Shown here in pieces: positions 15,201 to 60,267 of a stretch of 64,000 nucleotides of DNA; position 1 is the first letter of the stretch; each line of letters starts with the position of its first letter. Position numbers and translations under genes: made by a program. The DNA is taken from contig JAACJO010000003.1 of assembly GCA_013368445.1 (NCBI GenBank), positions 620,001 through 684,000 on the forward strand, given 5' to 3'. The DNA comes from Leucocoprinus leucothites. Its lineage: Eukaryota; Basidiomycota; Agaricomycetes; Agaricales; Agaricaceae. The notes below the pieces were generated by a model, which was not told where the DNA came from, made no database searches, and saw only the letters and a program-made list of their open reading frames with translations.

Positions 15201-15582
15201 TTATCCCTTTTGTAGGACTTGATGTCCTCATCAACATATTTATCCAAAACTCATTCAATACTATGGTCCCCCCCCCTCCCCCCCCCTTTTGTGCACCACC
15301 ACCCCTTTTTACTCTCCTCACACAATTTTTTGCACAGGAGTAAAGCACATTATTTCGCAGTTTTAGACAGTTTTTTGGGATGTATAGCTTGAGTATGTCA
15401 GAAGATATGTCTTGTGGTCATTGTCACACTTGCCAGGTGATGCTGTGTTGGAGTGTAATTGAAGTGATCACATCATTTGCCTGTTTTGTCCACATATCCA
15501 CAATGACAATGCAAAACTACTCCCTTCACTCACATTCTTTATAGCTCAGAAACCTCAAAACTGCTGTGATTGACATGCTTAT

Positions 15583-18340: not shown

Positions 18341-18365
18341 TGAAAGGGGGGGGGGGACCATAGTA

Positions 18366-22165: not shown

Positions 22166-22724
22166 TGTTAAGCGCGCAAACGCTACGGATAGGGAGCCGA
22201 CGTCAAGGACCGGTTGGACAGAGGTGTGACAGAGGTAAGGCAGGAGCCGGTTGTCGGACACGGGAGCGGGTCGTGGCCTCAACTTATGTGTTGTGCCGAC
22301 TACTGACGCTTGACCCGGATTTCAGACAATATAAGAGAGCTGAGGACGAACAGAGAGTAGAGGAAAGTAGCGTATCGCTAAGTTGATTATCAGACTGAGG
22401 AAACCAAGTACAAAGTCGTGCTACTTATATACGATGCGGAATATAGGATCGGATAAAGAAAACAAACAAAGTAATAAACGGAGAAATAATCAAAGTGGAG
22501 TCCGCAAATTTTACAAGGCTAGAAGATATAAAATTTACTATTAAACGGTTGTCAGAAAATTTCGACAAGGCGGTATGAATTAATAACATGGAAGATGTCA
22601 GAATAAGTCCGAAGGCGAAAGACCGATAAAAACCGAAGTAACCGATATGTGAAAGCGGCTATGAGTTCATGAAAATAATACCAAGTTCAAACCGTCAGCC
22701 GTTCTTGAGGTCCGGCTCGTGACA
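22166..22724 (-). repeat. 3' LTR of chromovirus A
   Basis: 559 bp, TGTTAAGCG..GGCTCGTGACA on the plus strand (TGTCACGAGC..TTAACA in sense). Adjacent at 22725-22738 is the 3' polypurine tract (AAGGGGGGAATAC in sense). Confidence 0.95.
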
Positions 22725-22853
22725 GTATTCCCCCCTTAGGGCTGAGCCCTCGAAGCCACGTGACTTGATCGTGGGAACCAATTCGAACTCCGTATAAATT
22801 CCGCTCTGAGGGAAAAATTAAGCTTTCTCACAACTTAATCCCCTTTATCTACC

Positions 22854-24108
22854 ATGGCGCCCAATTCCGCTACACAAGGATCCGACCCGATGTCTGATAG
22901 CGACCTCGAAAACGAACTTCGCAAGATGGACGAGGAGGATGCTCGGAAGGCAGCCGAGGAAGAGGAGAGGAAGAAGAGAGAAGCTGAGGAAGCCGAAAAG
23001 AAGAAGCGCGAGGAGGCGGAACGGCAGAAGAGGAAAGAAGAGTTGCGGAGGAAGATGGCAGAGAAGAAACAGAGAGAGGCTGAGGAAGCTGAGAAAAAGA
23101 GGAAGGAGGCCGAGGAAGCGGAGCGGCTACAAAAGGAAAAGGAGGAGGCCGAGCTGACGGAGCGGATTCGGCTCGAGGCCGAGAAGAAGGAGAAGGAAAG
23201 ACAGGAAAAAGAGAAGGGGAAGGGAAAGAAGAGGGCAATGGAGGTAGAGGTCGAGATAGTGGAGAGTCCGGCGAAGAAAACGAAAACGACAGAAAATGCG
23301 AAGGCGGGGACTGGGGCTCGAAGGCCTCGTGCAAAACCGACGAGCGGGCCGGCTGATACGGCCAGGTTGACTCAACGGAGTGCGGCCGCTGGTCCCTCCA
23401 AGTATCAAATTACGGAGTTGGATGATCAAGACGACGATCCGTTGTGGACGCCCGGCTCAGGTTTGGCCGGAGATGGAAGAGACGAGACCGCCGTTCTCCG
23501 AAAACGCGGAAACTATGACGCCAAGGGAGGGAAGATAAAGATGGGCGGAGACAACGAGTGCGGGCGGTGCTTGCGTCTGGGCAAGAACTGCACCGAGCAA
23601 AGTGACGCGTGAGTAGCTTCCGATTCCCTGGGTCGGCTGATCAACTGACAACATTCACAGCGGCAAGTATATGTGCGAGCCGTGCCACACTTCAAAACAG
23701 AAGTGTGCGGTTCCGACAGAGGCTGACAAACAGTCTCATGAACAAACGTACGAACTAATTGTCGAACAGAGGAAGACCCGGGCCGTCCAAACGGCTATTC
23801 TCAAGGAGTTGAAGGGGATCCGGGCCGAGTTGGGAACTCGGCACTTGGCAATGGTGTCGAGTATCCGGTCCCAGACCAAGGTCGTGGATGGGCTGGCTAA
23901 GGACTTCGAGGAGTTCTACGACCGGCTTGTCCTTGATGACAAGGTGATGGACGACGAGGCGCACGAAAAGGCACGGGCGGAGTTGGACGCTAGATTGGCC
24001 GCTAAGAAGAACGTGCCCGAGACGTCGGAAGCTGGATCTGGGGATGAGGGAGAGGCTGGAGAGGAGGAGGATGAGGGAGAGAAGGAGGATGAGAGTGGGA
24101 GTAAGTAG
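22854..24108 (+). CDS. Opposite-strand Zn2Cys6 coiled-coil protein of chromovirus A
   Basis: A spliced gene antisense to gag-pol, between pol and the 3' LTR: exons 22854-23608 and 23661-24108 with a GTGAGT..CACAG intron, 400 residues. It starts MAPNSATQGSDPMSD, has a long charged helix (about residues 20-125, repeats of AEEAEKKKREEAER type), a basic stretch (KGKGKKRAMEV, SPAKKTKT) and then six cysteines, C236-x2-C239-x6-C246-x10-C257-x2-C260-x6-C267, the exact spacing of the fungal Gal4-type binuclear zinc cluster. A helical segment and an acidic tail follow. Upstream lie a CCAAT at about 22780 and GTATAAATT at about 22792, 60 bp before the ATG. The intron joins the third and fourth cysteines, which argues strongly for a real gene. 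A role in transcription or targeting is inference. Confidence 0.8.
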
Positions 24109-24415
24109 GTCGTTTCGTCCATCCCGTTCCTCATGCTCGGCTCGCGTCGTCGTGAATCCGTTTTTTTTGTTGTCGCATATTTTACTTTTGCTCTTTGGAC
24201 TTGTGTTTGAAATGGATGATATTTCTTGGGGCCAAGTGTGAGTAAAGAAAAAAGTCCGAAATAAGAGAAAAAAGACGAGAGGGAGATGAGGCTATTGGGT
24301 GTAAGCAAAAACAAAACGGTAAGTACGGAAGTGCAAAAAATTGTCTAAGTCCAAAAGAAAACGAGTGAGCCGGTATCATAAAACGGGTGAAGAAAATACG
24401 TAGCCGAGAGAAAGT
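24109..24415. other. Convergent gap between pol and opposite-strand gene
   Basis: About 300 bp between the stop of the opposite-strand gene (24108) and the stop of pol (24416). AT-rich with T/A runs (TTTTTTTTG near 24160, GAGAAAAAAG near 24265), suitable for both 3' ends. No ORF. Confidence 0.6.
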
Positions 24416-27400
24416 CTAGGATAAAGGAAGTGGGCCAGGCTTGTCAGGATAAGCAGAATGGTAATCAAAAAGAAGTTCAGTCGCGTGTGTAAGCTCGGTA
24501 GCAGGTAACCATGAAGATTCTTCGTCAGTATCTTCATATCCCAACCAGATGACCTTGTAGAGAAGTTTGCATGCGCGACGTCGATCGATCTTCGAGTCTA
24601 CGATGCGGGCGATCTCGTACTCTGGCTCACCGTCAATGACAACGGGAGCAGGAGCCGGTTCTGTGCGATCGGAAAATGGATTGGGTGTGGTCGGCTCAAG
24701 CATGGAAACGTGGAAGACAGGATGAACAGCGCGCATGGAATCTGGAAGGCGAAGGGTGAACGAGTGAGAGCCAGGTTGAGCGATAATTTCGTATGGACCG
24801 AGGTATTTTTCGGAAAGCTTTTTGGATGGACGGGTAGTGCGGAAGAATTGAGCTTTCACGAAAACTTTCTGGCCGACTTTGAACTCTGGGGCTGGTAACC
24901 GACGTGCATCAGCGGTTCGTTGGTAGCGTTCTTGAGCAGTGGCTATTTCAGTTTTGAGAGTAGTGTGTAATTCGTCGAGATCGACTGCGAAGTCGCGTGC
25001 GCGAGCCGATGCGATATCGCGTTCAGGATGAACTGTAATGTTTGGGTGATAACCCTTGTTGGCGAAGAAGGGCGAAATTCCGGTGGTAGCACTGGGCGCG
25101 TTGTTGTATGCGAATTCTGCAAGTGGGAGTAGGTCGGACCAGTTGTTCTGCTGATAGTTGCAGTAAACGCGGAGGTACTGCTCTAGCGTTTGGTTAGTTC
25201 GTTCCGTCTGTCCGTCACCTTCAGGATGATAGCCGGATGTGAAATGAAGGCGCATGTCCAGAGCCGTGCCGAGGGAACGGAAGAAGTGTGAGACGAACTC
25301 TGAACCGCGATCGGAAGTGACATGAGAAGGAACACCGTGCTTAGAGAATACGTGAATGACGAATAACCGTGCTAGTTCTGCGGAAGTGATAGTGTCGTGG
25401 GTCGGAATGAATACAGCCTGTTTGGAGAGTCGGTCGACGATAACGAGGATGGTGTCAAAGCCAGAGGAAGAAGGGAGTTTCTCGATAAAATCCATTGAAA
25501 TCGAATTCCAAGGGCGTTCAGGAATGGGGAGTTGCTTGAGGTTACCGTATGGCTTGTGGCGCTGAGACTTGGATCGCATACAGGTAACGCAGGATTTACA
25601 GAAAGCCTTGACCTGAGATCGGATATCAGGCCAGGTGTACTCGCGTCGGATGAGTTCGAGGGTCTTGTTCTGACCGAAATGGCCAGAAAGGACGTGATCG
25701 TGTTTGTATTGTAGAACTCTGAGTCTAAGATTGTTGACGTCGGGTACATAGATCCTGTCGTCGAGCCGAAGGAAACCAGCGGAATCAACTGACCAGCGGC
25801 CTTCGGGATGAGTGATGTGAGCGGATGCGATCGGGTCTTGAGGGAGCGAAGTAAGGATATCAGAATGAAGTTTCTCGAGATCTAGTATGGTGGCAGCGCG
25901 AAGGGAAGGAGTTGAAAAATAAGTAGCTCGAACTGAAGCCGATAACTGTTCATGCGAAAATACAGGACGAAAATTATGAGGATTGACCGAAGCGTAGCCA
26001 TTATTCCCCCCTTTAGGGTAGACGTCCCATCGTCTAGTGAGAGCGTCAGGCTTGGTTCCGAGTCGGCCGGGTCGGAAACGGATGATGAGGTTGAACTGTG
26101 ATATGAACTCAGACCAACGAGCCTGTCGACGAGTTAGGATCTTCGTAGTGCAGAAGTATTCCAGGTTCTTGTGATCGGTAACAACGTCAATAGGAAGTGG
26201 GGCTCCTTCAAGGTAATGCCGCCAGGTGCGGAAAGCCTCGAAGATAGCAAGGAGCTCTTTGTCGTGAGTGTCATAGTTTAACTCGGCCGTGTTGAAGGTG
26301 CGGGAATGGAACGCAATCGGGTGGACTTCGTTGTCGTCCGCGACAATGGAAAGGATGGCAGCAAGTGCATAATCGGAAGCATCAGTCTCAATGATGATCT
26401 GGGCGTCGGGTATCCAGTGAGTGAGTATAGGAGCAGTAGTGAACGCTTCTTTGAGGGAGTTAAAGGCTTCGCGACACCGTTCGTCGAAGTTCCACTTAGA
26501 TGCTTTTCGGGTGAGACGTGTAAGCGGGACGACGATATCGGAATAGTTGTAAATGAAGCGTCGATAGAAATTGGCGAAACCGAGAAAAGACTGGATGTCT
26601 TTGACTTTCTTCGGTTCAGGCCACTCCTGGATGATTTTGATTTTGTCTTCCGACATTTTGAGACCGGCTGGTGAAAGGATATACCCGAGGTATTCGACAG
26701 AATCGGAATGGAACTCGCATTTTTCCGCTTTAGCATATAGGCCATGCTTGCGGAGCCGCTTGAGGACGTCTCGAACTTGTTTCTTGTGTGTGTCGAGGTC
26801 GTCAGAGTAGATGAGGATGTCGTCGAGATAGACTGTGACGCAGACGTCGAGGAGGTCGGAAAAGATGTCGTTCATGAACCGCTGGAAAGCTGCGGGTGCG
26901 TTGGTGAGTCCGAAAGGCATAACCAGCCATTCAAAGGATCCATAGCGGGTCCTGAAAGCCGTTTTCCATTCGTCTCCTTCAGCGATCCGAACGAGGTGAT
27001 AAGCGTGTCGAAGGTCTATCTTGGTGTAGATGCGGGCTTTGCGAGGAGAGTCGAGTAGGTCAGAGATGAGCGGGAGCGGGTAGCGATCCTTCTTGGTGAT
27101 GCGATTGAGGCCGCGGAAATCGACACAAAGTCGTAATGAACCGTCTTTCTTCCGAACGAAGAGAACGGGTGCGCCGTGAGGCGAAGAAGTGGGGCGGATA
27201 AAACCAATAGATACGTGTTCGTCGATAAATTCGCGGAGCGACTCAAGCTCGGATGGAGATAATGAATAGATAGTGCCAATGGGAGGTTGAGCACCCTCTT
27301 CAATATTGATTTTGAGATCGTAAGGGCGATGCGGTGCAAGGCTGTCAGCACGAGCTTTGCTGAACACATCGGCGAATTCATGATATTCGTCGGGCACTTT

Positions 27401-28190
27401 AGAAAGGTCAATTGACTCGTCGGAAACCCGAGCCGAATTGGCGGAAGCGGAAGGCGAGCTGAGATTGAGGCGGAAGTTTACTGAACCAGGAAGGCGCGAA
27501 GCGCGAATGTATGCAGCAGCGTTGATGATAGAAATGCGAGGAGCTGTTGCAATACCAGGAGTAGACATAGAAGTCCCAGAGGATGGTGAATTCAGAGGAG
27601 GAGTGTCAGCCGTCGTACTAGGAGCGGGTGACGATGTAGGAGCCGCTATGGGAGCGGATGCGACGCGGGCAGAAGGGGCAAGATTATCCTGCAAATGCGA
27701 TCGGAAGGATATACTGCTCGAAACCCAGTCAATCAACGGATTGTAGCGGGTGAGCCAGTTGTGTCCAAGTACCACAGAGCAGGAAGAATCAAGCCGAGTG
27801 ACGTAGAAGTCAATAGTCATAGATTCACCGGTAGAGAATGTAACAGGCAGATTCACAAGTTCAGTAATGTAACTATTCGACGATCCGTCAAATAGGCGAA
27901 GCTCGATAGGAGGTAAGGGCGAAGTCGGAAGAGAGTGAGTGCGGACGAAATCAGAATCTATGAAGCAATGAGTCGAGCCGGAATCAACGAGAGCACAAAA
28001 CGGTATCCGTTGGATATTATCGGATGAGCAAATGAGAGAAGAAGTGAGGGAAGCGATAAGAGAATTTGGGTCGGAAAGAGCGGACGCATTGAGGCGGAGG
28101 AGACTCTCTGGTGCACAGATGAGCTCAACGCGACCCCCAGTCTGTGCAGAGTCCTGAGGGTCGCCCTCTATTTTTCCGGACTCTTTTCAG
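24416..28190 (-). CDS. pol: Pol polyprotein of chromovirus A
   Basis: Open from about 28187 (reached by -1 frameshift from gag) to TAG 24416; an internal ATG at 27856 begins a 1146-residue stretch. Order: aspartic protease (ALVDSGSTHC), reverse transcriptase ([49 protein letters not shown]), RNase H (ETDASDYALAAI, NYDTHDKELLAI), integrase HHCC finger (HDHVLSGHFGQNKT, CKSCVTC), DDE core (MDFIEKLPSSSGFDTI, TSDRGSEF, GQTERTNQTLEQ), GPY/F (KYLGPYEIIAQPGSHSF) and a C-terminal chromodomain (YEIARIVDSKI, YKVIWLGYEDTDEESSWLP). All catalytic residues are present. The chromodomain places it among chromoviruses, which can integrate at methylated-histone chromatin. Confidence 0.95.
26001..26015 (-). other. 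Candidate central polypurine tract, element A
   Basis: In sense, CCTAAAGGGGGGAATAA, nearly the same as the 3' tract at 22725-22738. It sits between RNase H and integrase, close to the middle of the element. Confidence 0.6.
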
Positions 28191-29759
28191 AGTCCTTGGA
28201 CGGAGCCGCTTCGACTTTGCGGATCTTGGCCCGATTTTGTTTCTTGTGGCAATTCTCGACCTTGTGGCCTTTGCCACCGCAGAATAGACAGAGATCTTCG
28301 TCGAGGCGTCGTTTCCGCTCCTCGGGTGTCAGTTTGCCATTTTGGCCGAGTTTACTAGATAGGTCGAATTTCGGCGTAGGGCGTTGGGTACTGGATGTGG
28401 ATGGAGCGGGGGTGTTGGATTTGGTAGTCGGGCCTGCGACTGATTACGGTTGCTGTTGTTGTTGCTGTTACTGTTGTTGCCTCCTCGATTGTTGTTGTTG
28501 TTGTTGTTGCCAGGTTGAGACTGGCCGCGTGACGGATTCGGGTTGGAAGGATTGGAGGTCGAGGGCTTGTTGGGCTGCTTCCGATTCAGAGAATCGGCAG
28601 CATCCTTCTCTGCAGCGCGGGCACGAACACGTTCACGGTCACGCTCCCAGTAGCGTCCGTCGTAAACGATGGCCAAGCGATGCATTTCCTCGAAAGTAGT
28701 GGGTTTACCCTGCTCACGGGTACTGAGAGGGTCTTGGATGCGGTTCGGAAGTCCCTTGTAGTAACGATGGCAGAGGACCTCGTCGTTCCAACCGAGTTGA
28801 GAGGCGTGTTTGAGGAACTCGACGTTGAAAGTGGCGATTTTATCACCCGGTTTCATGCGAAGGGTATCAAGCATCTCGGCTGCTTCTCCCTTTGGGTTGG
28901 CAATGCCAAAATGCGTACGGAGCTCGCGGACAAATGCATTCCAATCGTCGAACCAGTCATGGAAGACACCCTGTTCTTCCTGAGTGAGGCCGACCTCGAA
29001 CCAGTCAAGCGCAACACCGGTGAGGTAGGTCATGGCAAAATCGACTTTCTGATTGTCGTGCTGGAACTGTGTGGGGTTGGCTCGGAAATATAGACGGCAT
29101 TGGATTAGGAAAGTGTTGAGTTTTTCGGGGTCAGAGCCGCTAAAAGTGTCTGGGAGGCGAGCCTTATTGGTGCGAGTCTGGTTGGCTTGTGCAGCTGCTT
29201 GGTGATCAAGATTGTCAGCGAGCCTACCCAAGGCCTCGGCTAGACGATCATTGTTTGGATCCTGTCGGGGAGCCCGGGGATGAGGTACCCGTCGAGGAGG
29301 AAGAGGCTCATCGTCGGAGGAGTGGGAAGGATCTTCAGGATCATTGTCGTCGGGGTCACCAGGACCACCGGGGGAGCCGTTATAGATGGGTTCATCGTCT
29401 TCATCATCGCCGTCGTGGCCCATAGATTGATTATCGGCGTAGTCTGGACCATCAGAGTCACCCGGTTCCGAGGGATCGGATGGATTTCTGTCAGATGGCA
29501 GACCGCCAGGTGGGGCAGGAGTTCTGGGAGAACGGATATTTCGAAAACGACGAGGAGGCGGTGGAGGAGAACTAGCAGATCGAGGAGTTTCTGGGAGATT
29601 GGGATTAAGACGACGTGAACGACGAGCGCGGATACTGATACGAGAATTGTCGTCGGTCAGACGAGAAGAGCTTGGGACAGGAGGAGGAGTGTGAGAGCGT
29701 TTCCGCTCTGGTTGCGCAACGGTGGAGGTCTTGCCCTTGATAGTACGGGTGTTGACCAT
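28168..29759 (-). pseudogene. gag: Gag of chromovirus A, one-base frameshift
   Basis: Starts MVNTRTIKGKTSTVA at 29759 and matches element B gag: a proline/acidic-rich N-terminus, then the retrotransposon gag core (LPDTFSGSDPEKLNTFLIQC to NGRYWERDRERV-like). Compared with B it lacks one base in a C-run (plus-strand G-run at 28430-28434), so the frame ends at 28329 and the zinc knuckle CLFCGGKGHKVENC, still encoded downstream, is lost. The rest of the frame to the stop at 28168-28170 is intact. Confidence 0.9.
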
Positions 29760-29793
29760 GATAACAGAAGTGCGAGTGCGACAGTAGAATCTG

Positions 29794-29804
29794 AGTCTGA
29801 TAAT
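29794..29804 (-). other. Primer-binding site, element A (self-priming type)
   Basis: In sense, ATTATCAGACT two bases (GT) after the 5' LTR. It is the exact complement of AGTCTGATAAT in the LTR, which lies 35 nt after TATATAAG, where the mRNA should start. No match to a tRNA 3' end (no TGG) is seen. Confidence 0.7.
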
Positions 29805-29806
29805 AC

Positions 29807-30365
29807 TGTTAAGCGCGCAAACGCTACGGATAGGGAGCCGACGTCAAGGACCGGTTGGACAGAGGTGTGACAGAGGTAAGGCAGGAGCCGGTCGTCGGAC
29901 GCGGGAGCGGGTCGTGGCCTCAACTTATGTGTTGTGCCGACTACTGACGCTTGACCCGGATTTCAGACAATATAAGAGAGCTGAGGACGAACAGAGAGTA
30001 GAGGAAAGTAGCGTATCGCTAAGTTGATTATCAGACTGAGGAAACCAAGTACAAAGTCGTGCTACTTATATACGATGCGGAATATAGGATCGGATAAGGA
30101 AAACAAACAAAGTAATAAACGGAGAAATAATCAAAGTGGAGTCCGCAAATTTTACAAGGCTAGAAGATATAAAATTTACTATTAAACGGTTGTCAGAAAA
30201 TTTCGACAAGGCGGTATGAATTAATAACATGGAAGATGTCAGAATAAGTCCGAAGGCGAAAGACCGATAAAAACCGAAGTAACCGATATGTGAAAGCGGC
30301 TATGAGTTCATGAAAATAATACCAAGTTCAAACCGTCAGCCGTTCTTGAGGTCCGGCTCGTGACA
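29807..30365 (-). repeat. 5' LTR of chromovirus A
   Basis: 559 bp, complete, with TATATAAG and the putative transcript start in sense orientation. It faces the truncated 5' LTR of element B across a 124-bp spacer. Confidence 0.95.
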
Positions 30366-30430
30366 CAGCTAAGACATCCTTAATCAGGTCTAAAAGGTCC
30401 CACTCCTCACACATAAGATAATAATCCATA
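30366..30430 (-). pseudogene. hAT transposase, short internal piece
   Basis: Between elements A and the pogo-type terminus. On the minus strand it encodes YYLMCEEWDLLDLIKDVLA, the L..EEW..L motif of hAT transposases, running directly into the piece beyond element A after an intron. This continuity identifies the host of the nest. Confidence 0.75.
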
Positions 30431-30489
30431 TACAGTCGAATCTCTCTTAACCGATAGGCTTCCATCACCCCCTGGCATTATCGGATATG

Positions 30490-30689
30490 TGTCACGAGCC
30501 TCTGTTCGTCCTCAGCTCTCTTATATTGTCTGAAATCCGGGTCAAGCGTCAGTAGTCGGCACAACACATAAGTTGAGGCCACGACCCGCTCCCGCGTCCG
30601 ACGACCGGCTCCTGCCTTACCTCTGTCACACCTCTGTCCAACCGGTCCTTGACGTCGGCTCCCTATCCGTAGCGTTTGCGCGCTTAACA
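30490..30689 (+). repeat. 5' LTR of chromovirus B, internally deleted
   Basis: The first 11 bp (TGTCACGAGCC) join directly to the last 189 bp (from TCTGTTCGTCC). The missing 359 bp contain most of U3, the TATA box and the predicted transcript start. The flanking target duplication is intact, so the deletion left the outer end in place. At three positions this LTR agrees with element A rather than with the 3' LTR of B. Confidence 0.93.
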
Positions 30690-30691
30690 GT

Positions 30692-30702
30692 ATTATCAGA
30701 CT
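30692..30702 (+). other. Primer-binding site, element B
   Basis: ATTATCAGACT after a GT spacer; complement of AGTCTGATAAT at 38076-38086 in the 3' LTR, 35 nt after TATATAAG (38041). Confidence 0.7.
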
Positions 30703-30736
30703 CAGATTCTACTGTCGCACTCGCACTTCTGTTATC

Positions 30737-32305
30737 ATGGTCAACACCCGTACTATCAAGGGCAAGACCTCCACTGTTGCGCAACCAGAGCGGAAACGCT
30801 CTCACACTCCTCCTCCTGTCCCAAGCTCTTCTCGTCTGACCGACGACAATTCTCGTATCAGTATCCGCGCTCGTCGTTCACGTCGTCTTAATCCCAATCT
30901 CCCAGAAACTCCTCGATCTGCTAGTTCTCCTCCACCGCCTCCTCGTCGTTTTCGAAATATCCGTTCTCCCAGAACTCCTGCCCCACCTGGCGGTCTGCCA
31001 TCTGACAGAGATCCATCCGATCCCTCGGAACCGGGTGACTCTGATGGTCCAGACTACGCCGATAATCAATCTATGGGCCACGACGGCGATGATGAAGATG
31101 ATGAATCCATCTATAACGGCTCCCCCGGTGGTCCTGGTGACCCCGACGACAATGATCCTGAAGATCCTTCCCACTCCTCCGACGATGAGCCTCTTCCTCC
31201 TCGACGGGCACCTCATCCCCGAGCTCCCCGACAGGATCCAAACAATGATCGTCTAGCCGATGCCTTGGGTAGGCTCGCTGACAATCTCGATCACCAAGCG
31301 GCTGCACAAGCCAATCAGACTCACGTCAATAAGGCTCGCCTCCCAGACACTTTCAGCGGCTCTGACCCCGAAAAACTCAACACTTTCCTAATCCAATGCC
31401 GTCTATATTTCCGAGCCAATCCCACTCAGTTCCAGCACGACAATCAGAAAGTCGATTTTGCCATGACCTACCTCACCGGTGTTGCGCTTGACTGGTTCGA
31501 GGTCGGCCTCACTCAGGAAGAACAGGGTGTCTTCCATGACTGGTTCGACGATTGGAATGCATTTGTCCGCGAGCTCCGTACGCATTTTGGCATTGCCAAC
31601 CCAAAGGGAGAAGCAGCCGAGATGCTCGATACCCTTCGCATGAAACCGGGTGATAAAATCGCCACTTTCAACGTCGAGTTCCTCAAACACGCCTCTCAAC
31701 TCGGTTGGAATGACGAGGTCCTCTGCCATCGTTACTACAAGGGACTTCCGAACCGCATCCAAGACCCTCTCAGTACCCGTGAGCAGAGTAAACCCACTAC
31801 TTTCGAGGAAATGCATCGCTTGGCTATCGTTTACGACGGACGCTACTGGGAGCGTGACCGTGAACGTGTTCGTGCCCGCACTGCAGAAAAGGATGCTGCT
31901 GATTCTCTCAGTCGGAAGCAGCCCAACAAGCCCTCGACCTCCAATACTTCCAATCCGAATCCGCCACGCGGCCAGTCTCAACCTGGCAACAATAACAACA
32001 ATAATCGAGGCAACAACAGCAACCGTAATCAGTCGCAGGCCCCGACTACCAAATCCAACACCCCCGCTCCATCCACATCCAGTACCCAACGCCCTACGCC
32101 GAAATTCGACCTATCTAGTAAACTCGGCCAAAATGGCAAACTGACACCTGAGGAGCGGAAACGACGCCTCGATGAAGATCTCTGTCTATTCTGCGGTGGC
32201 AAAGGCCACAAGGTCGAGAATTGCCACAAGAAACAAAATTGGGCCAAGATCCGCAAAGTCGAAGCGGCTCCGTCCAAGGACTCTGAAAAGAGTCCGGAAA
32301 AATAG
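30737..32305 (+). CDS. gag: Gag of chromovirus B
   Basis: 522 residues from ATG 30737 to TAG 32303-32305. N-terminal basic and Pro/Ser-rich segment, an acidic low-complexity part (about residues 95-155), the gag core (LPDTFSGSDPEKLNTFLIQC, FAMTYLTGVALDWFEVGL, TLRMKPGDKIATFNVEF, YYKGLPNRIQDPL), an Asn/Gln-rich linker and one CCHC zinc knuckle, CLFCGGKGHKVENC, near residue 490. It forms the particle and binds RNA. The stop lies inside a -1 frameshift signal leading to pol. Confidence 0.95.
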   Translation: MVNTRTIKGKTSTVAQPERKRSHTPPPVPSSSRLTDDNSRISIRARRSRRLNPNLPETPRSASSPPPPPRRFRNIRSPRTPAPPGGLPSDRDPSDPSEPGDSDGPDYADNQSMGHDGDDEDDESIYNGSPGGPGDPDDNDPEDPSHSSDDEPLPPRRAPHPRAPRQDPNNDRLADALGRLADNLDHQAAAQANQTHVNKARLPDTFSGSDPEKLNTFLIQCRLYFRANPTQFQHDNQKVDFAMTYLTGVALDWFEVGLTQEEQGVFHDWFDDWNAFVRELRTHFGIANPKGEAAEMLDTLRMKPGDKIATFNVEFLKHASQLGWNDEVLCHRYYKGLPNRIQDPLSTREQSKPTTFEEMHRLAIVYDGRYWERDRERVRARTAEKDAADSLSRKQPNKPSTSNTSNPNPPRGQSQPGNNNNNNRGNNSNRNQSQAPTTKSNTPAPSTSSTQRPTPKFDLSSKLGQNGKLTPEERKRRLDEDLCLFCGGKGHKVENCHKKQNWAKIRKVEAAPSKDSEKSPEK

Positions 32306-35300
32306 AGGGCGACCCTCAGGACTCTGCACAGACTGGGGGTCGCGTTGAGCTCATCTGTGCACCAGAGAGTCTCCTCCGCCTCAATGCGTCCGCTCTTTCC
32401 GACCCAAATTCTCTTATCGCTTCCCTCACTTCTTCTCTCATTTGCTCATCCGATAATATCCAACGGATACCGTTTTGTGCTCTCGTTGATTCCGGCTCGA
32501 CTCATTGCTTCATAGATTCTGATTTCGTCCGCACTCACTCTCTTCCGACTTCGCCCTTACCTCCTATCGAGCTTCGCCTATTTGACGGATCGTCGAATAG
32601 TTACATTACTGAACTTGTGAATCTGCCTGTTACATTCTCTACCGGTGAATCTATGACTATTGACTTCTACGTCACTCGGCTTGATTCTTCCTGCTCTGTG
32701 GTACTTGGACACAACTGGCTCACCCGCTACAATCCGTTGATTGACTGGGTTTCGAGCAGTATATCCTTCCGATCGCATTTGCAGGATAATCTTGCCCCTT
32801 CTGCCCGCGTCGCATCCGCTCCCATAGCGGCTCCTACATCGTCACCCGCTCCTAGTACGACGGCTGACACTCCTCCTCTGAATTCACCATCCTCTGGGAC
32901 TTCTATGTCTACTCCTGGTATTGCAACAGCTCCTCGCATTTCTATCATCAACGCTGCTGCATACATTCGCGCTTCGCGCCTTCCTGGTTCAGTAAACTTC
33001 CGCCTCAATCTCAGCTCGCCTTCCGCTTCCACCAATTCGGCTCAGGTTTCCGACGAGTCAATTGACCTTTCTAAAGTGCCCGACGAATATCATGAATTCG
33101 CCGATGTGTTCAGCAAAGCTCGTGCTGACAGCCTTGCACCGCATCGCCCTTACGATCTCAAAATCAATATTGAAGAGGGTGCTCAACCTCCCGTTGGCAC
33201 TATCTATTCATTATCTCCATCCGAGCTTGAGTCACTCCGCGAATTTATCGACGAGCACGTGTCTATTGGATTTATCCGCCCCACTTCTTCGCCTCACGGC
33301 GCACCCGTTCTCTTCGTTCGGAAGAAAGACGGTTCATTACGACTTTGTGTCGATTTCCGCGGCCTTAATCGCATCACCAAGAAGGATCGCTACCCGCTCC
33401 CGCTCATCTCTGACCTACTTGACTCTCCTCGCAAAGCCCGCATCTACACCAAGATAGACCTTCGACACGCTTACCACCTCGTTCGGATCGCTGAAGGAGA
33501 CGAATGGAAAACGGCTTTCAGGACCCGCTATGGATCCTTTGAATGGCTGGTTATGCCTTTCGGACTCACCAACGCACCCGCAGCTTTCCAGCGGTTCATG
33601 AACGACATCTTTTCCGACCTCCTCGACGTCTGCGTCACAGTCTATCTCGATGACATCCTTATCTACTCTGACGACCTCGACACACACAAGAAACATGTTC
33701 GAGATGTCCTCAAGCGGCTCCGCAAGCATGGCCTATATGCTAAAGCGGAAAAATGCGAGTTCCATTCCGATTCTGTCGAATACCTCGGGTATATCCTTTC
33801 ACCAGCCGGTCTCAAAATGTCGGAAGACAAAATCAAAATCATCCAGGATTGGCCTGAACCGAAGAAAGTCAAAGACATACAGTCTTTTCTCGGTTTCGCC
33901 AATTTCTATCGACGCTTCATTTACAACTATTCCGATATCGTCGTCCCGCTTACACGTCTCACCCGAAAAGCATCTAAGTGGAACTTCGACGAACGGTGTC
34001 GCGAAGCCTTTAACTCCCTCAAAGAAGCGTTCACCACTGCTCCTATACTCACTCACTGGATACCCGACGCCCAGATCATCATTGAGACTGATGCTTCCGA
34101 TTATGCACTTGCTGCCATCCTTTCCATTGTCGCGGACGACAACGAAGTCCACCCGATTGCGTTCCATTCCCGCACCTTCAACACGGCCGAGTTAAACTAT
34201 GACACTCACGACAAAGAGCTCCTCGCTATCTTCGAGGCTTTCCCCACCTGGCGGCATTACCTTGAAGGAGCCCCACTTCCTATTGACGTTGTTACCGATC
34301 ACAAGAACCTGGAATACTTCTGCACTACGAAGATCCTAACTCGTCGACAGGCTCGTTGGTCTGAGTTCATATCACAGTTCAACCTCATCATCCGTTTCCG
34401 ACCCGGCCGACTTGGAACCAAGCCTGACGCTCTCACTAGACGATGGGACGTCTACCCTAAAGGGGGGAATAATGGCTACGCTTCGGTCAATCCTCATAAT
34501 TTTCGTCCTGTATTTTCGCATGAACAGTTATCGGCTTCAGTTCGAGCTACTTATTTTTCAACTCCTTCCCTTCGCGCTGCCACCATACTAGATCTCGAGA
34601 AACTTCATTCTGATATCCTTACTTCGCTCCCTCAAGACCCGATCGCATCCGCTCACATCACTCATTCCGAAGGCCGCTGGTCAGTTGATTCCGCTGGTTT
34701 CCTTCGGCTCGACGACAGGATCTATGTACCTGACGTCAACAATCTTAGACTCAGAGTTCTACAATACAAACACGATCACGTCCTTTCTGGCCATTTCGGT
34801 CAGAACAAGACCCTCGAACTCATCCGACGCGAGTACACCTGGCCTGATATCCGATCTCAGGTCAAGGCTTTCTGTAAATCCTGCGTTACCTGCATGCGAT
34901 CCAAGTCTCAGCGCCACAAGCCATACGGTAACCTCAAGCAACTCCCCATTCCTGAACGCCCTTGGAATTCGATTTCAATGGATTTTATCGAGAAACTCCC
35001 TTCTTCCTCTGGCTTTGACACCATCCTCGTTATTGTCGACCGACTCTCCAAACAGGCTGTATTCATTCCGACCCACGACACTATCACTTCCGCAGAACTA
35101 GCACGGTTATTCGTCATTCACGTATTCTCTAAGCATGGTGTTCCTTCTCATGTCACTTCCGATCGCGGTTCAGAGTTCGTCTCACACTTCTTCCGTTCCC
35201 TCGGCACGGCTCTGGACATGTGCCTTCATTTCACATCCGGCTATCATCCTGAAGGTGACGGACAGACGGAACGAACTAACCAAACGCTAGAGCAGTACCT

Positions 35301-36057
35301 CCGCGTTTACTGCAACTATCAGCAGAACAACTGGTCCGACCTACTCCCACTTGCAGAATTCGCATACAACAACGCGCCCAGTGCTACCACCGGAATTTCG
35401 CCCTTCTTCGCCAACAAGGGTTATCACCCAAACATTACAGTTCATCCTGAACGCGATATCGCATCGGCTCGTGCACGCGACTTCGCAGTCGATCTCGACG
35501 AATTACACACTACTCTCAAAGCTGAAATAGCCACTGCTCAAGAACGCTACCAACGAACCGCTGATGCACGTCGGTTACCAGCCCCAGAGTTCAAAGTCGG
35601 CCAGAAAGTTTTCGTGAAAGCTCAATTCTTCCGCACTACCCGTCCATCCAAAAAGCTTTCCGAAAAATACCTTGGTCCATACGAAATTATCGCTCAACCT
35701 GGCTCTCACTCGTTCACCCTTCGCCTTCCAGATTCCATGCGCGCTGTTCATCCTGTCTTCCACGTTTCCATGCTTGAGCCGACCACACCCAATCCATTTT
35801 CCGATCGCACAGAACCGGCTCCTGCTCCCGTTGTCATTGACGGTGAGCCAGAGTACGAGATCGCCCGCATCGTAGACTCGAAGATCGATCGACGTCGCAC
35901 ATGCAAACTTCTCTACAAGGTCATCTGGTTGGGATATGAAGATACTGATGAAGAATCTTCATGGTTACCTGCTACCGAGCTTACACATGCGACTGAACTT
36001 CTTTTTGATTACCATTCTGCTTATCCTGACAAGCCTGGCCCACTTCCTTTATCCTAG
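32287..36057 (+). CDS. pol: Pol polyprotein of chromovirus B
   Basis: Open from 32287 in the -1 frame to TAG 36055-36057, about 1256 residues; the internal ATG 32617 would give 1146. Same domains as in A: protease (DSGSTHC at about 32443), RT with YLDD, RNase H, integrase HHCC and DDE, GPY/F, chromodomain ending PDKPGPLPLS. About ten residues differ from A, for example FEAFP for FEAFR in RNase H and LDMC for LDMR in integrase. No stop or frameshift. Confidence 0.95.
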   Translation, partial: KESGKIEGDPQDSAQTGGRVELICAPESLLRLNASALSDPNSLIASLTSSLICSSDNIQRIPFCALVDSGSTHCFIDSDFVRTHSLPTSPLPPIELRLFDGSSNSYITELVNLPVTFSTGESMTIDFYVTRLDSSCSVVLGHNWLTRYNPLIDWVSSSISFRSHLQDNLAPSARVASAPIAAPTSSPAPSTTADTPPLNSPSSGTSMSTPGIATAPRISIINAAAYIRASRLPGSVNFRLNLSSPSASTNSAQVSDESIDLSKVPDEYHEFADVFSKARADSLAPHRPYDLKINIEEGAQPPVGTIYSLSPSELESLREFIDEHVSIGFIRPTSSPHGAPVLFVRKKDGSLRLCVDFRGLNRITKKDRYPLPLISDLLDSPRKARIYTKIDLRHAYHLVRIAEGDEWKTAFRTRYGSFEWLVMPFGLTNAPAAFQRFMNDIFSDLLDVCVTVYLDDILIYSDDLDTHKKHVRDVLKRLRKHGLYAKAEKCEFHSDSVEYLGYILSPAGLKMSEDKIKIIQDWPEPKKVKDIQSFLGFANFYRRFIYNYSDIVVPLTRLTRKASKWNFDERCREAFNSLKEAFTTAPILTHWIPDAQIIIETDASDYALAAILSIVADDNEVHPIAFHSRTFNTAELNYDTHDKELLAIFEAFPTWRHYLEGAPLPIDVVTDHKNLEYFCTTKILTRRQARWSEFISQFNLIIRFRPGRLGTKPDALTRRWDVYPKGGNNGYASVNPHNFRPVFSHEQLSASVRATYFSTPSLRAATILDLEKLHSDILTSLPQDPIASAHITHSEGRWSVDSAGFLRLDDRIYVPDVNNLRLRVLQYKHDHVLSGHFGQNKTLELIRREYTWPDIRSQVKAFCKSCVTCMRSKSQRHKPYGNLKQLPIPERPWNSISMDFIEKLPSSSGFDTILVIVDRLSKQAVFIPTHDTITSAELARLFVIHVFSKHGVPSHVTSDRGSEFVSHFFRSLGTALDMCLHFTSGYHPEGDGQTERTNQTLEQYLRVYCNYQQNNWSDLLPLAEFAYNNAPSATTGISPFFANKGYHPNITVHPERDIASARARDFAVDLDELHTTLKAEIATAQERYQRTADARRLPAPEFKVGQKVFVKAQFFRTTRPSKKLSEKYLGPYEIIAQPGSHSFTLRLPDSMRAVHPVFHVSMLEPTTPNPFSDRTEPAPAPVVIDGEPEYEIARIVDSKIDRRRTCKLLYKVIWLGYEDTDEESSWLPATELTHATELLFDYHSAYPDKPGPLPLS
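32298..32343 (+). promoter_or_regulatory. -1 ribosomal frameshift signal, gag-pol, element B
   Basis: gag ends GAA AAA TAG; pol is open in the -1 frame from 32287, so the overlap is 19 nt. The slip site is GGAAAAA (A-run 32298-32302). Six bases later an 11-bp stem forms between 32309-32319 (GCGACCCTCAG) and 32333-32343 (CTGGGGGTCGC), with one G.U pair and a 13-nt loop. The geometry is that of known -1 signals. Same layout in A (about 28135-28175) and D. Confidence 0.7.
34459..34472 (+). other. Candidate central polypurine tract, element B
   Basis: AAAGGGGGGAATAA, near copy of the 3' tract AAGGGGGGAATAC (37735-37747) next to the 3' LTR. It encodes PKGGNN between RNase H and integrase, about 51% along the element. 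Confidence 0.6.
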
Positions 36058-36363
36058 ACTTTCTCTCGGCTACATATTTTCTTCACCCGTTTTATGATAC
36101 CGGCTCACTCGTTTTCTTTTGGACTTAGACAATTTTTTGCACTTCCGTACTTACCGTTTTGTTTTTGCTTACACCCAATAGCCTCATCTCCCTCTCGTCT
36201 TTTTTCTCTTATTTCGGACTTTTTTCTTTACTCACACTTGGCCCCAAGAAATATCATCCATTTCAAACACAAGTCCAAAGAGCAAAAGTAAAATATGCGA
36301 CAACAAAAAAACAGATTCACGACGACGCGAGCCGAGCATGAGGAACGGGATGGACGAAACGAC
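36058..36363. other. Convergent gap between pol and opposite-strand gene, element B
   Basis: About 300 bp without an ORF, rich in T runs; mirror of 24109-24415. Confidence 0.6.
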
Positions 36364-37618
36364 CTACTTACTCCCACTCTCATCCTCCTTCTCTCCCTCA
36401 TCCTCCTCCTCTCCAGCCTCTCCCTCATCCCCAGATCCAGCTTCCGACGTCTCGGGCACGTTCTTCTTAGCGGCCAATCTAGCGTCCAACTCCGCCCGTG
36501 CCTTTTCGTGCGCCTCGTCGTCCATCACCTTGTCATCAAGGACAAGCCGGTCGTAGAACTCCTCGAAGTCCTTAGCCAGCCCATCCACGACCTTGGTCTG
36601 GGACCGGATACTCGACACTATTGCCAAGTGCCGAGTTCCCAACTCGGCCCGGATCCCCTTCAACTCCTTGAGAATAGCCGTTTGGACGGCCCGGGTCTTC
36701 CTCTGTTCGACAATTAGTTCGTACATTTGTTCATGAGGCTGTTTGTCAGCCTCTGTCGGAACCGCACACTTCTGTTTTGAAGTGTGGCACGGCTCGCACA
36801 TATACTTGCCGCTGTGAATGTTGTCAGTTGATCAGCCGACCCAGGGAATCGGAAGCTACTCACGCGTCACTTTGCTCGGTGCAGTTCTTGCCCAGACGCA
36901 AGCACCGCCCGCACTCGTTGTCTCCGCCCATCTTTATCTTCCCTCCCTTGGCGTCATAGTTTCCGCGTTTTCGGAGAACGACAGTCTCGTCTCTTCCATC
37001 TCCGGCCAAACCTGAGCCGGGCATCCACAACGGATCGTCGTCTTGATCATCCAACTCCGTAATTTGATACTTGGAGGGACCAGCGGCCGCACTCCGTTGA
37101 GTCAACCTGGCCGTATCAGCCGGCCCGCTCGTCGGTTTTGCACGAGGCCTTCGAGCCCCAGTCCCCGCCTTCGCATTTTCTGTCGTTTTCGTTTTCTTCG
37201 CCGGACTCTCCACTATCTCGACCTCTACCTCCATTGCCCTCTTCTTTCCCTTCCCCTTCTCTTTTTCCTGTCTTTCCTTCTCCTTCTTCTCGGCCTCGAG
37301 CCGAATCCGCTCCGTCAGCTCGGCCTCCTCCTTTTCCTTTTGTAGCCGCTCCGCTTCCTCGGCCTCCTTCCTCTTTTTCTCAGCTTCCTCAGCCTCTCTC
37401 CGTTTCTTCTCTGCCATCTTCCTCCGCAACTCTTCTTTCCTCTTGTGCCGTTCCGCCTCCTCGCGCTTCTTCTTTTCGGCTTCCTCAGCTTCTCTCTTCT
37501 TCCTCTCCTCTTCCTCGGCTGCCTTCCGAGCATCCTCCTCGTCCATCTTGCGAAGTTCGTTTTCGAGGTCGCTATCAGACATCGGGTCGGATCCTTGTGT
37601 AGCGGAATTGGGCGCCAT
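36364..37618 (-). CDS. Opposite-strand Zn2Cys6 coiled-coil protein of chromovirus B
   Basis: Counterpart of the gene at 22854-24108: exon 1 37618-36864, exon 2 36811-36364, 400 residues, same six-cysteine cluster (C-x2-C-x6-C-x10-C-x2-C-x6-C) spanning the splice junction. The few differences from A (for example AERHKRKEEL for AERQKRKEEL, DPLWMPG for DPLWTPG) leave cysteines, splice sites and frame intact. Upstream (37619-37747) carries the same CCAAT and TATA-like boxes. It is transcribed toward pol. Function unknown; DNA binding is inferred from the cluster only. Confidence 0.8.
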
Positions 37619-37747
37619 GGTAGATAAAGGGGATTAAGTTGTGAGAAAGCTTAATTTTTCCCTCAGAGCGGAATTTATACGGAGTTCGAATTGGTTCCCA
37701 CGATCAAGTCACGTGGCTTCGAGGGCTCAGCCCTAAGGGGGGAATAC

Positions 37748-38306
37748 TGTCACGAGCCGGGCCTCAAGAACGGCTGACGGTTTGAACTTGGTATTATTTT
37801 CATGAACTCCTAGCCGCTTTCACATATCGGTTACTTCGGTTTTTATCGGTCTTTCGCCTTCGGACTTATTCTGACATCTTCCATGTTATTAATTCATACC
37901 GCCTTGTCGAAATTTTCTGACAACCGTTTAATAGTAAATTTTATATCTTCTAGCCTTGTAAAATTTGCGGACTCCACTTTGATTATTTCTCCGTTTATTA
38001 CTTTGTTTGTTTTCCTTATCCGATCCTATATTCCGCATCGTATATAAGTAGCACGACTTTGTACTTGGGTTCCTCAGTCTGATAATCAACTTAGCGATAC
38101 GCTACTTTCCTCTGTTCTCTGTTCGTCCTCAGCTCTCTTATATAGTCTTAAATCCGGGTCAAGCGTCAGTAGTCGGCACAACACATAAGTTGAGGCCACG
38201 ACCCGCTCCCGCGTCCGACGACCGGCTCCTGCCTTACCTCTGTCACACCTCTGTCCAACCGGTCCTTGACGTTGGCTCCCTATCCGTAGCGTTTGCGCGC
38301 TTAACA
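37748..38306 (+). repeat. 3' LTR of chromovirus B
   Basis: 559 bp, TGTCACGAGCC..CGCTTAACA, complete, with TATATAAG at 38041-38048 and the putative transcript start AGTCTGATAAT at 38076. Confidence 0.95.
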
Positions 38307-40104: not shown

Positions 40105-40154
40105 TTATCCCTTTTGTAAGACTTGATGTCCTCATCAGCAACTTTATTTGAAAC

Positions 40155-49147: not shown

Positions 49148-49152
49148 CAGTA

Positions 49153-59065: not shown

Positions 59066-60267
59066 TCATTTCCAATACCCATGTCCCACACCATCCTTCA
59101 ATCCCTGCGCCATCGCTAGCTTCGCCTCCTTGATCGCCACAAGCCTCTCAAGTGTCCTTCCATGTGCCTGTAACACCCTCATAGTCTCCCTCAATGCCAA
59201 CACCTGCTCATCCAACGTGCTAACCTGCTGTTGCAACATAACCTGATTTTGAAGTTGTGCCTGCATATTTTCCCTTGTTGTGATCTCCAGATTGTCCACT
59301 GCTGATGATAATTGTGCAACTTCTTGTGAAAGACTTGGGGAATGACCAGAAGCCCGCAATAGTTGGGGTGGAAGGGGCTGAGGAGACTTCATTGTGATTT
59401 TAGTAATGTTGCCTCACAAATCTGCAAACAAACTTACCACCATCCTAGTATCCTGTTCAGTGACGATTGCAGGTGACCTGATCTCTATCGCTCCAAATGT
59501 ATCATCATCCACAGTGGGTGGGATTTCAGGCAGATTCCACTGTGGAGAGGATGACAGTTGAGTGGACGGAGGTGGTGCGAAACTCAATCCCCAATTACTG
59601 GAGCTCAATAGTGATGGTTGACTCATGGGAGGCACTGTTATTTTTTGTTTTTTCGATGTTGTTGTTCTGATCGGCGACAAGCTCACTCCTTGACTAGAGG
59701 TCTCCTTCTTTGGATCATCCTGTAGATCGTAACACCCCTTCTTTGCTTGCACACAATATGTACATTTCCCTAATCCACACTGCAACTTACACTCCCACTG
59801 CCCAGCAATGCATTGCAAACACGTCATGTAACTCTTTCAGTAAGGTAGCCCATCAGTCGGGTTCTGCTGACACCGTTCTTCTTCCAAGCGAAGCTTGACG
59901 AAGCCCTACTTGATGTCGCAACAGGAACAGATACATGATCCATTACTTCACGTGATCCTGACGTTGATACCCTCGTTGGCGCTCTCCCCTTACCCTTCGA
60001 CGATATCTGTGACTCTTCCTCTTCATCATCATTATCATCATCACTTTGGACTATCTGTCACAATCTAGTGGTCCTCTGTGTTGCAGTAGAAGCTGAATTT
60101 GTTGTTGCACTGTTGCTGGGTTGACTCATCATCATTCCCGACACCGCAGCCATCGCTGGCTGTATGTTCGCTCCCTGTTTGGTGTTCCAATGTTGAATCT
60201 CGGCCATGAGTTCGTCATTTGTCATTGCGCTTAGGTTGGGGGTTTTCTTCAAGGAGCAGGGAGCCAT
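59066..60267 (-). pseudogene. Opposite-strand Zn2Cys6-type gene of chromovirus D (broken)
   Basis: Antisense to gag-pol between pol and the 3' LTR, starting MAPCSLKKTPNLSAM at 60267 in an ACCACCATGG context. A TGA stop follows QRTTRL (60058), after which the frame continues with an acidic and Ser-rich part. A second frame (59827-59414) has the cysteines C-x2-C-x6-C-x8-C-x2-C-x6-C (MTCLQCIAGQWEC, then CTYCVQAKKGC), the Gal4-type spacing. The last piece (59392-59066) is a coiled coil rich in Gln/Leu ending GHGYWK. Gene order and start agree with the gene of A/B although sequence has diverged strongly. Exact splicing is unclear. Confidence 0.65.

What the first reader, a model, noticed from the sequence alone, without database searches (positions are those of the whole stretch)
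22854..24108. Spliced opposite-strand Zn2Cys6 gene carried by a chromovirus
Seen: A and B each hold a two-exon gene antisense to gag-pol, between pol and the 3' LTR, with its own CCAAT/TATA-like boxes and a 300-bp convergent gap. Removing the intron brings six cysteines into the exact Gal4-type spacing (2-6-10-2-6). Known: Zn2Cys6 proteins are fungus-specific transcription factors. Inference: the element encodes its own regulator or tether, possibly acting on LTR or host promoters.
Basis: partly seen in the sequence, partly recalled or inferred. Interest (0 to 1): 0.87.

Follow-up and report, generated by a model that had tools for sequence, protein, structure and literature searches.

The report
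Antisense zinc-cluster gene in mushroom retrotransposons
Jumping elements in the mushroom Leucocoprinus leucothites carry, back to front beside their own genes, a spliced gene for a protein that looks like a DNA-binding regulator, and selection has kept its sequence over long times, which suggests that the elements bring their own control protein.

Summary
Element A (LTRs 22166-22724 and 29807-30365, target duplication CAGCT) and its inverted relative B each carry a two-exon, 400-codon gene antisense to pol: exons 22854-23608 and 23661-24108, a 52-nt intron, a 307-nt convergent gap. The host is Leucocoprinus leucothites. The gene is a regular part of this chromovirus clade: 86 of 93 related pol ends have an antisense Cys-gene match just 3' of pol. 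Eleven of 35 loci examined keep a full-length spliced frame. Between diverged intact copies dN/dS is 0.07-0.19; the six cysteines are kept in 146 of 150 cells; an intron sits at the same place at 47% protein identity. A second family (element C) has its own version. Corrections: 2-6-10-2-6 is not Gal4's spacing (2-6-6-2-6); Pfam Zn_clus scores below cut-off (13 against 21 bits); the halves resemble, weakly, the canonical halves in swapped order. Against: the young pair A/B shows no constraint. Unexpected: in 88 of 91 pairs of 14 chosen loci the antisense gene is more diverged at third positions than pol, and it recombines between lineages. Antisense accessory genes are known (Grande, Retand, Boty brtn), so: new variant of a known kind. 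Self-regulation is the best explanation, untested: no RNA, zinc or DNA-binding data.

The parts
22166..30365 (-). Element A, chromovirus with both LTRs (pol on the minus strand), TSD CAGCT at 22161-22165 and 30366-30370
   Evidence: LTRs 559 nt, 3 differences between them, identical 5-bp flanks; domains
22166..22724 (-). 3' LTR of A
22718..22805 (.). Polypurine tract (by inspection) plus promoter-like block, 92% identical between A and distant copy L045 where the LTR is 68%
22738..22750 (.). Palindrome AGGGCTGAGCCCT beside the tract, candidate operator or extension of the tract
   Evidence: 2 matches in the window (one in A, one in B), 0.01 expected; seen in aligned copies incl. L045
22793..22799 (+). 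TATA box of the antisense gene, 61 nt upstream of its ATG
   Evidence: sequence; kept in L045
22854..23608 (+). Antisense gene A, exon 1: E/K-rich long helix, basic stretch, first half of the Cys cluster
23559..23591 (+). First Cys half CGRCLRLGKNC (residues 236-246)
23609..23660 (+). Intron, 52 nt, GTGAGT...CTGAC...CACAG
23661..24108 (+). Antisense gene A, exon 2: second Cys half, helix, acidic tail
23674..23706 (+). Second Cys half CEPCHTSKQKC (residues 257-267)
24109..24415 (.). Convergent gap between antisense gene and pol
24416..28186 (-). pol of A (protease, RT, RNase H, integrase, chromodomain), stop-to-stop frame 1256 aa
28329..29843 (-). gag frame of A (504 aa stop to stop; 550 aa in B)
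29807..30365 (-). 5' LTR of A
30490..38306 (+). Element B, inverted relative, TSD ATATG, 5' LTR with an internal deletion
36364..37618 (-). Antisense gene B: exon 1 37618-36864, intron 36863-36812, exon 2 36811-36364; its protein reads the same as database protein P0001 (NCBI D9756_004556)
59066..60267 (-). Degenerate antisense gene of element C: Cys spacing 2-6-8-2-6 with one extra Cys, predicted intron 59437-59378 after the cluster, exon 2 open to its stop

Best explanation
This is an accessory gene that belongs to a clade of Ty3/gypsy chromoviruses in Leucocoprinus leucothites. It is transcribed against gag-pol from its own promoter between the polypurine tract and the ATG, spliced once, and encodes a nuclear protein: long charged helix, basic stretch, Zn2Cys6-like cluster, second helix, acidic tail. 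Being antisense, its intron is not an intron in the genomic RNA that is reverse transcribed, which explains how a spliced gene survives retrotransposition. The most likely work of the protein is to bind DNA, probably as a dimer, and regulate transcription of the element itself (its LTR or its own promoter), as retroviral HBZ does and as is proposed for antisense proteins of plant elements. Shown: gene anatomy, residence in the mobile unit, presence across the clade, long-term purifying selection, conserved cysteines, splice signals and promoter block. Inferred: expression, nuclear location, zinc and DNA binding, dimer, direction of regulation.
For: Element A has a TSD and LTRs differing at 3 of 559 sites, with the gene inside. 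Searching with pol instead of the gene: 86 of 93 pol 3' ends (at least 68% identical over at least 214 aa) have an antisense Cys-gene match within 2.5 kb 3' of pol on the other strand: 40 A-type, 21 L045-type, 25 C-type (gene places). Of 35 loci examined (32 fetched, plus A, B, C), 11 keep a two-exon frame of 391-402 aa with six cysteines and the intron in place. NG86: A/L028 dS 0.692, dN 0.048, ratio 0.07; A/L033 0.118; A/L038 0.159; A/L045 0.136 with dS saturated. Cys kept in 146 of 150 cells in 25 copies against 75.8% mean residue retention. PPT-promoter block 92% A/L045 against LTR 68%, gap 52%. Helices 15-122 and 272-343 predicted. The second half carries K at the position of Gal4 K18 (recalled as a DNA-contact lysine). 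C family: 43 matches, 26 without a stop in the matched stretch, dN/dS 0.21-0.28 among three copies over 138-140 codons. Papers: Grande gene23 is nuclear with its own promoter (PMC7264820); Retand TRP28 antisense proteins probably bind DNA (PMC11963269, passages).
Against: No RNA evidence. Zn_clus below Pfam cut-off (13.1 of 21 bits; 9.0 for P0003; none for P0004). AlphaFold confidence mostly under 50 over the cluster. A/B: 7 nonsynonymous, 1 synonymous in the gene against 10 and 22 in pol (Fisher p 0.006). Seven of 93 pol ends have no gene match, and the copy at C4:1216290, with an open pol frame of 1257 aa, has matches only to residues 1-77 and 343-402 of P0003 in one 136-aa frame, so it seems to lack the cluster. 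24 of 35 loci have no full-length frame by my finder. No binding site shown.
Confidence: 0.5

Rival explanations
1. The protein is an accessory factor of the integration step or of the incoming complex: a nuclear chromatin tether that works with the pol chromodomain, not a regulator of transcription.
For: Chromodomain in pol; long helices plus Zn2Cys6-like module and acidic tail suit a bridging protein.
Against: A separate antisense unit with its own TATA block gives no obvious route into the particle; pol already has a chromodomain.
Confidence: 0.17
2. Anti-silencing or host-manipulating factor: it binds host or element chromatin and opposes silencing or changes host promoters.
For: The gene is more diverged at third positions than pol in 88 of 91 pairs of 14 chosen loci, which could reflect pressure for variety; Zn2Cys6 proteins are fungal regulators (recalled).
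Against: The protein itself is conserved (dN/dS 0.07-0.19), which is not typical of an arms race; no host target known.
Confidence: 0.12
3. The antisense RNA is what matters (dsRNA or transcriptional interference), and the protein is incidental.
For: Convergent arrangement with pol; antisense RNAs are proposed to regulate other elements (PMC7264820).
Against: Codon-periodic divergence (A/L028 95.3, 93.3, 71.6% by codon position), low dN/dS and kept cysteines show selection on the protein.
Confidence: 0.06
4. A host gene captured once and now decaying as a passenger.
For: A/B pair looks unconstrained; 24 of 35 loci lack a full-length frame; one copy with open pol seems to lack the cluster.
Against: Lineages at dS 0.4-0.7 and beyond keep full-length frames; 86 of 93 related pol ends have the gene beside them; a second family has its own version; no host homologue in 3 database searches.
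Confidence: 0.05
5. On the separate question of the divergence excess: it comes only from chance recombination with older element lineages, with no functional meaning.
For: Clear mosaic copies, e.g. L027 matches L028 at 55 of 57 informative sites at 22250-22999 and A at 153 of 168 at 24000-27749, with a mixed stretch between.
Against: The excess falls on the same block in 88 of 91 non-independent pairs among 14 chosen loci.
Confidence: 0.5

Closest known systems
brtn of Boty-like retrotransposons in Botrytis cinerea (Zhao 2011, seen only as a cited title and in passages of PMC8365987, PMC4227169, PMC5987419)
   Same: Fungal element with gag-pol ending in a chromodomain and one additional antisense gene
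   Different: Ascomycete; protein sequence not held here, so homology, splicing and Zn cluster could not be compared
Grande gene23, RIRE2 and Retand antisense ORFs of plants (PMC7264820 parts 1-2 of 3 read; PMC11963269 passages)
   Same: Antisense gene between pol and 3' LTR, own promoter and nuclear protein in Grande, TRP28 domain that probably binds DNA in Retand
   Different: Plant elements; no Cys6 cluster reported in what I read; Retand is a non-chromovirus lineage
HTLV-1 HBZ (PMC7264820 and PMC11963269 passages; details recalled)
   Same: Antisense regulator gene at the 3' end of a retroelement, nuclear; spliced (recalled)
   Different: bZIP protein (recalled), promoter inside the 3' LTR, human retrovirus
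Gal4-type Zn2Cys6 transcription factors (PF00172)
   Same: Two C-X2-C-X6-C halves followed by a predicted long helix; lysine at position 8 of one half
   Different: Linker of 10, halves look swapped, Pfam score below cut-off, gene is in a retroelement

Membership tests
Antisense accessory genes (aORF) of LTR retrotransposons | Frame between pol and 3' LTR, antisense to gag-pol | tested here: met
   A and B; orientation to pol in fetched loci
Antisense accessory genes (aORF) of LTR retrotransposons | Present in most copies of the family | tested here: met
   86 of 93 pol 3' ends found by a pol search; the search scored 148 of 381 candidates and I used 93 of its 150 matches
Antisense accessory genes (aORF) of LTR retrotransposons | Conserved as coding sequence | tested here: met
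   dN/dS 0.07-0.19 among diverged intact copies; not seen in the young pair A/B
Antisense accessory genes (aORF) of LTR retrotransposons | Own antisense transcript | not testable with these tools
   no RNA data; conserved TATA block only
Chromovirus (chromodomain Ty3/gypsy) | RT, RNase H, then integrase and C-terminal chromodomain in pol | tested here: met
   PF00078, PF17917, PF00665, PF00385 above cut-off
Gal4-type Zn2Cys6 family (PF00172) | Profile match over the curated cut-off | tested here: not met
   13.1, 13.2, 9.0 bits against 21; none for P0004
Gal4-type Zn2Cys6 family (PF00172) | Six cysteines C-X2-C-X6-C-Xn-C-X2-C-X6-C | tested here: met
   2-6-10-2-6, kept in 146 of 150 cells
Gal4-type Zn2Cys6 family (PF00172) | Basic DNA-contacting half first, second half after it | tested here: not met
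   swapped order scores 12-16 bits better in 4 of 4 A-type proteins, but in absolute terms swapped sums are only -2.7 to 2.0 bits; 2 C-type proteins undecided (one slightly each way); 12 of 14 canonical halves classed correctly in leave-one-out, 7 training proteins; weak AlcR match also crossed
Gal4-type Zn2Cys6 family (PF00172) | Binuclear zinc and sequence-specific DNA binding | not testable with these tools
   model unreliable over the cluster, pLDDT mostly under 50

The most novel reading that the evidence does not exclude
The antisense gene is the specificity cassette of the element, comparable with a phage immunity region: element lineages with nearly the same pol and LTR carry old, strongly diverged versions of the regulator and exchange them by recombination, because each version sets which copies repress or activate each other in one nucleus. 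The protein would use a circularly permuted Zn2Cys6 cluster, a new version of a main DNA-binding module of fungi.
Probability: 0.1. Interest if true: 0.86.

Novelty: new variant of a known kind. Interest (0 to 1): 0.62.

Why it matters
The function of antisense accessory genes in LTR retrotransposons is an open question; the review read here states that their functions are not known (PMC7264820). Here is a case in a mushroom where the protein has a recognisable DNA-binding-like module, a conserved intron, several intact and divergent natural versions in one genome, and a compact conserved promoter block to test against. That makes the question directly testable. If the protein regulates its element, fungal retrotransposons carry HBZ-like control of their own; if the cluster is permuted, a very common fungal DNA-binding domain has a form that profile searches miss, so such genes may be hidden as hypothetical proteins.

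Tried and rejected
Tried without result: three protein searches for relatives outside the species gave P0001-P0003, named as L. leucothites, and P0004, one JGI protein of the C type from a 3,929-base contig; the tool needs short exact words, so distant relatives in other mushrooms are not excluded. Two scans of viral contigs found none. No Rfam match at 22000-38500 at gathering scores. NCBIfam gave only a TolA match for P0001, far below its cut-off. AlphaFold did not settle the cluster; I did not run a fold search on it. Rejected: that the real gene is one of the minus-strand frames. In L028, L033 and L045 the plus frames have 0 stops and higher identity in both exons, and most minus frames have stops; but one minus frame in exon 1 shares wobble positions with the gene, is nearly as conserved, and in the broken copy L021 even more conserved (84.3 against 81.2%); exon 2 decides. 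Rejected: host gene nearby, because it lies inside LTRs with TSD. Considered CACGTG and CCAAT as promoter boxes: not kept in L045. Selection of rows: one search counted cysteines in 25 copies, leaving out 10 of 35 loci (A as reference, B, L023-L026 and L046 as near duplicates, L048 and L049 as fragments, C as another type); the third-position comparison used 14 chosen loci of 35, and its exceptions include the close pairs A/L026 and L033/L037; one search used 93 of 150 pol matches (at least 68% identity and 214 aa) and most but not all gene rows. The exon finder allows one intron with a limited set of splice patterns, so 11 of 35 may be low. The Fisher test of silent sites uses a number of pol sites derived from dS.

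Full report
WHAT IS THERE. The window is C3:620001-684000 of a 47.0-Mb genome. It is Leucocoprinus leucothites: the protein of copy B reads the same as database protein P0001, NCBI D9756_004556, on a contig of the same length (taxonomy). Element A runs from 22166 to 30365 with pol on the minus strand, 559-nt LTRs that differ at 3 sites, and CAGCT on both flanks. Element B is an inverted relative with TSD ATATG and an internal deletion in its 5' LTR. Pol has RT, RNase H, integrase and chromodomain. Between the 3' LTR and the pol stop each holds a gene antisense to pol: in A, ATG 22854, exon 1 to 23608, 52-nt intron, exon 2 23661-24108, then 307 nt to the pol stop. Copy B is the mirror image with 8 codon differences.

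IS IT A GENE OF THE ELEMENT. The 35 loci below were found through the gene, so I also searched with the last 256 residues of pol. Of 150 matches (148 of 381 candidates were scored) I took the 93 with at least 68% identity over at least 214 residues; 86 of them have an antisense Cys-gene match on the other strand within 2.5 kb 3' of pol, 85 of these within 850 nt: 40 A-type, 21 L045-type, 25 C-type (gene places). Seven have none. One copy with an open pol frame of 1257 aa, C4:1216290, has matches only to the two ends of the antisense protein.

IS IT CODING. Searching the whole genome with the spliced A protein gave 112 matches, exon by exon and as a lower bound. I examined 32 fetched places plus A, B and C. 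In 11 of 35 a two-exon frame of 391 to 402 aa with all six cysteines and the intron in place is intact; six of those are A, B or close copies of A (L023-L026), and L045 and L046 gave identical genes. Nei-Gojobori ratios between diverged intact copies are 0.07 (A/L028; 117 synonymous, 44 nonsynonymous in 400 codons), 0.118 (A/L033), 0.159 (A/L038) and 0.136 with saturated dS for A/L045; the highest among diverged pairs is 0.188 (L033/L038). The youngest pair goes the other way: A/B has 7 nonsynonymous and 1 synonymous change, while pol of the same pair has 10 and 22 (Fisher p 0.006); A/L026 is 0.60. So constraint is clear over long times and not visible between fresh copies. The six cysteines are the only ones in the A protein and are kept in 146 of 150 cells over 25 copies, against a mean residue retention of 75.8%. 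Intron sequences differ at 6 to 13 of 52 sites among five lineages while donor and acceptor stay, and L045, about 47% identical in protein, has an intron of 52 nt at the same place with GTAAGT and TAG. Frames on the other strand are less conserved in both exons of L028, L033 and L045; in exon 1 one of them comes close, and in broken copy L021 it exceeds the gene (84.3 against 81.2%), so exon 2 is decisive.

PROMOTER BLOCK. Between A and L045 the 88 bp at 22718-22805 are 92% identical, against 68% in the LTR, 63.5% in exon 1 and 52% in the gap. This block contains the polypurine tract (named by inspection), which the element needs, but also the TATA box 61 nt before the ATG. A palindrome AGGGCTGAGCCCT lies beside the tract; it occurs twice in the window, once in A and once in B, with 0.01 expected. 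Whether it is an operator or part of the tract is open.

THE PROTEIN. AlphaFold on three sequences gives two long helices, 15-122 and 272-343, and low confidence over the cluster. Pfam Zn_clus scores 13.1 bits against a cut-off of 21; the matched range puts our first half on the profile's second half. In the PDB search AlcR matches weakly and crossed: our second half to its first, our first to its second. With half profiles from seven canonical proteins (12 of 14 halves classed correctly in leave-one-out) swapped order beats native order by 12 to 16 bits in four of four A-type proteins; the swapped sums themselves are only -2.7 to 2.0 bits, and two C-type proteins are undecided. The training set is small. 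UniRef names P0003 with a Zn(2)-C6 fungal-type domain (name cut off). Hence: a Zn2Cys6-like protein, probably with swapped halves, not a tested member of PF00172.

A SECOND FAMILY. Element C (about 52-61 kb; pol 74% identical in protein to A over residues 220-1252) has a degenerate antisense gene at the same place: ATG 60267, a Cys6 cluster with 2-6-8-2-6 and one extra cysteine, a predicted 60-nt intron after the cluster, and a second exon open to its stop. The genome holds 43 matches to a 140-residue stretch of it, 26 without a stop in the matched stretch, and dN/dS is 0.21 to 0.28 among three copies. So two element families have different antisense genes with a similar cluster and different intron positions.

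AN UNEXPECTED PATTERN. Copies with almost the same pol have strongly diverged antisense genes. A/L028: gene dS 0.692, pol dS 0.098, LTR 95.7% and promoter block 100% identical. A/L033: 0.421 and 0.060. For the distant copy L045 the excess is small (third positions 0.431 against 0.360). Third-position divergence is higher in the gene than in pol in 88 of 91 pairs of 14 chosen loci; pairs are not independent. Copies are mosaics: L027 matches L028 at 55 of 57 informative sites at 22250-22999 and A at 153 of 168 at 24000-27749, with a mixed stretch between, probably from a further lineage (Fisher p 7e-36). Recombination is clear; why the same block is so regularly the oldest is not explained. A reading by analogy with phage immunity regions is my most novel case and is speculation.

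HOW IT MOST LIKELY WORKS. Inference: the gene is transcribed from the block next to the tract, spliced, and makes a nuclear regulator of the element. Because the intron is on the strand opposite to the genomic RNA, it survives reverse transcription; this follows from the anatomy. Zinc binding, DNA binding, expression and direction of regulation are untested.

WHAT IS KNOWN. [quoted passage not shown] function unknown; Grande's protein is nuclear and has its own promoter (PMC7264820, parts 1 and 2 of 3 read). Retand antisense proteins with TRP28 probably bind DNA (PMC11963269, passages). Brtn was seen only as a cited title and in mentions; Boty gag-pol has a chromodomain (PMC4227169, passage). 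Ten full-text searches listed no paper whose title or abstract start reports a Zn2Cys6-type antisense gene in an LTR retrotransposon (at most 20 rows were listed per search); most subscription papers are not held. Two fungal surveys searched for terms (PMC3411680, PMC2864245) have no 'antisense' in the main text; the second marks additional ORFs of unknown function.

VERDICT. A real, selected, spliced antisense accessory gene that is a regular part of its clade; a new variant of a known kind; regulator role plausible, about even.

Noticed in passing
window 40155-41115 and 18269-19018, minus strand: Another gypsy family carries frames downstream of pol on the pol strand; the one at 40648-41115 has CCHC-like knuckles (CAICRIDSHFVDQC...CKYCQHSAPGHLRKYC).
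   Followed up: no
window 30490-30689: The 5' LTR of element B keeps its first bases and its last about 190, with the middle deleted; TSD ATATG flanks the element.
   Followed up: partly
L036, L039, L043: A further antisense-gene lineage with a three-residue deletion just before the cluster; beside it L036 has only a 32%-identical pol match and L039 none.
   Followed up: partly
G000 C4:1216290-1217772: A copy with an open pol frame of 1257 aa whose antisense gene seems to have lost its middle, cluster and intron included.
   Followed up: partly
window 22738-22750 and 37722-37734: Conserved palindrome AGGGCTGAGCCCT next to the polypurine tract, possible operator or tract extension.
   Followed up: partly
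window 14503-15260, 39408-40164, 48451-49207, 54907-55663: Four copies of one repeat block in the same order; which element they belong to was not checked.
   Followed up: no
window 42723-42963 and 44078-44317: Inverted repeat, 181 nt at 95% with a further 63 nt at 79%, about 1.2 kb apart, beside pieces of a gypsy element; possible inserted DNA transposon.
   Followed up: no
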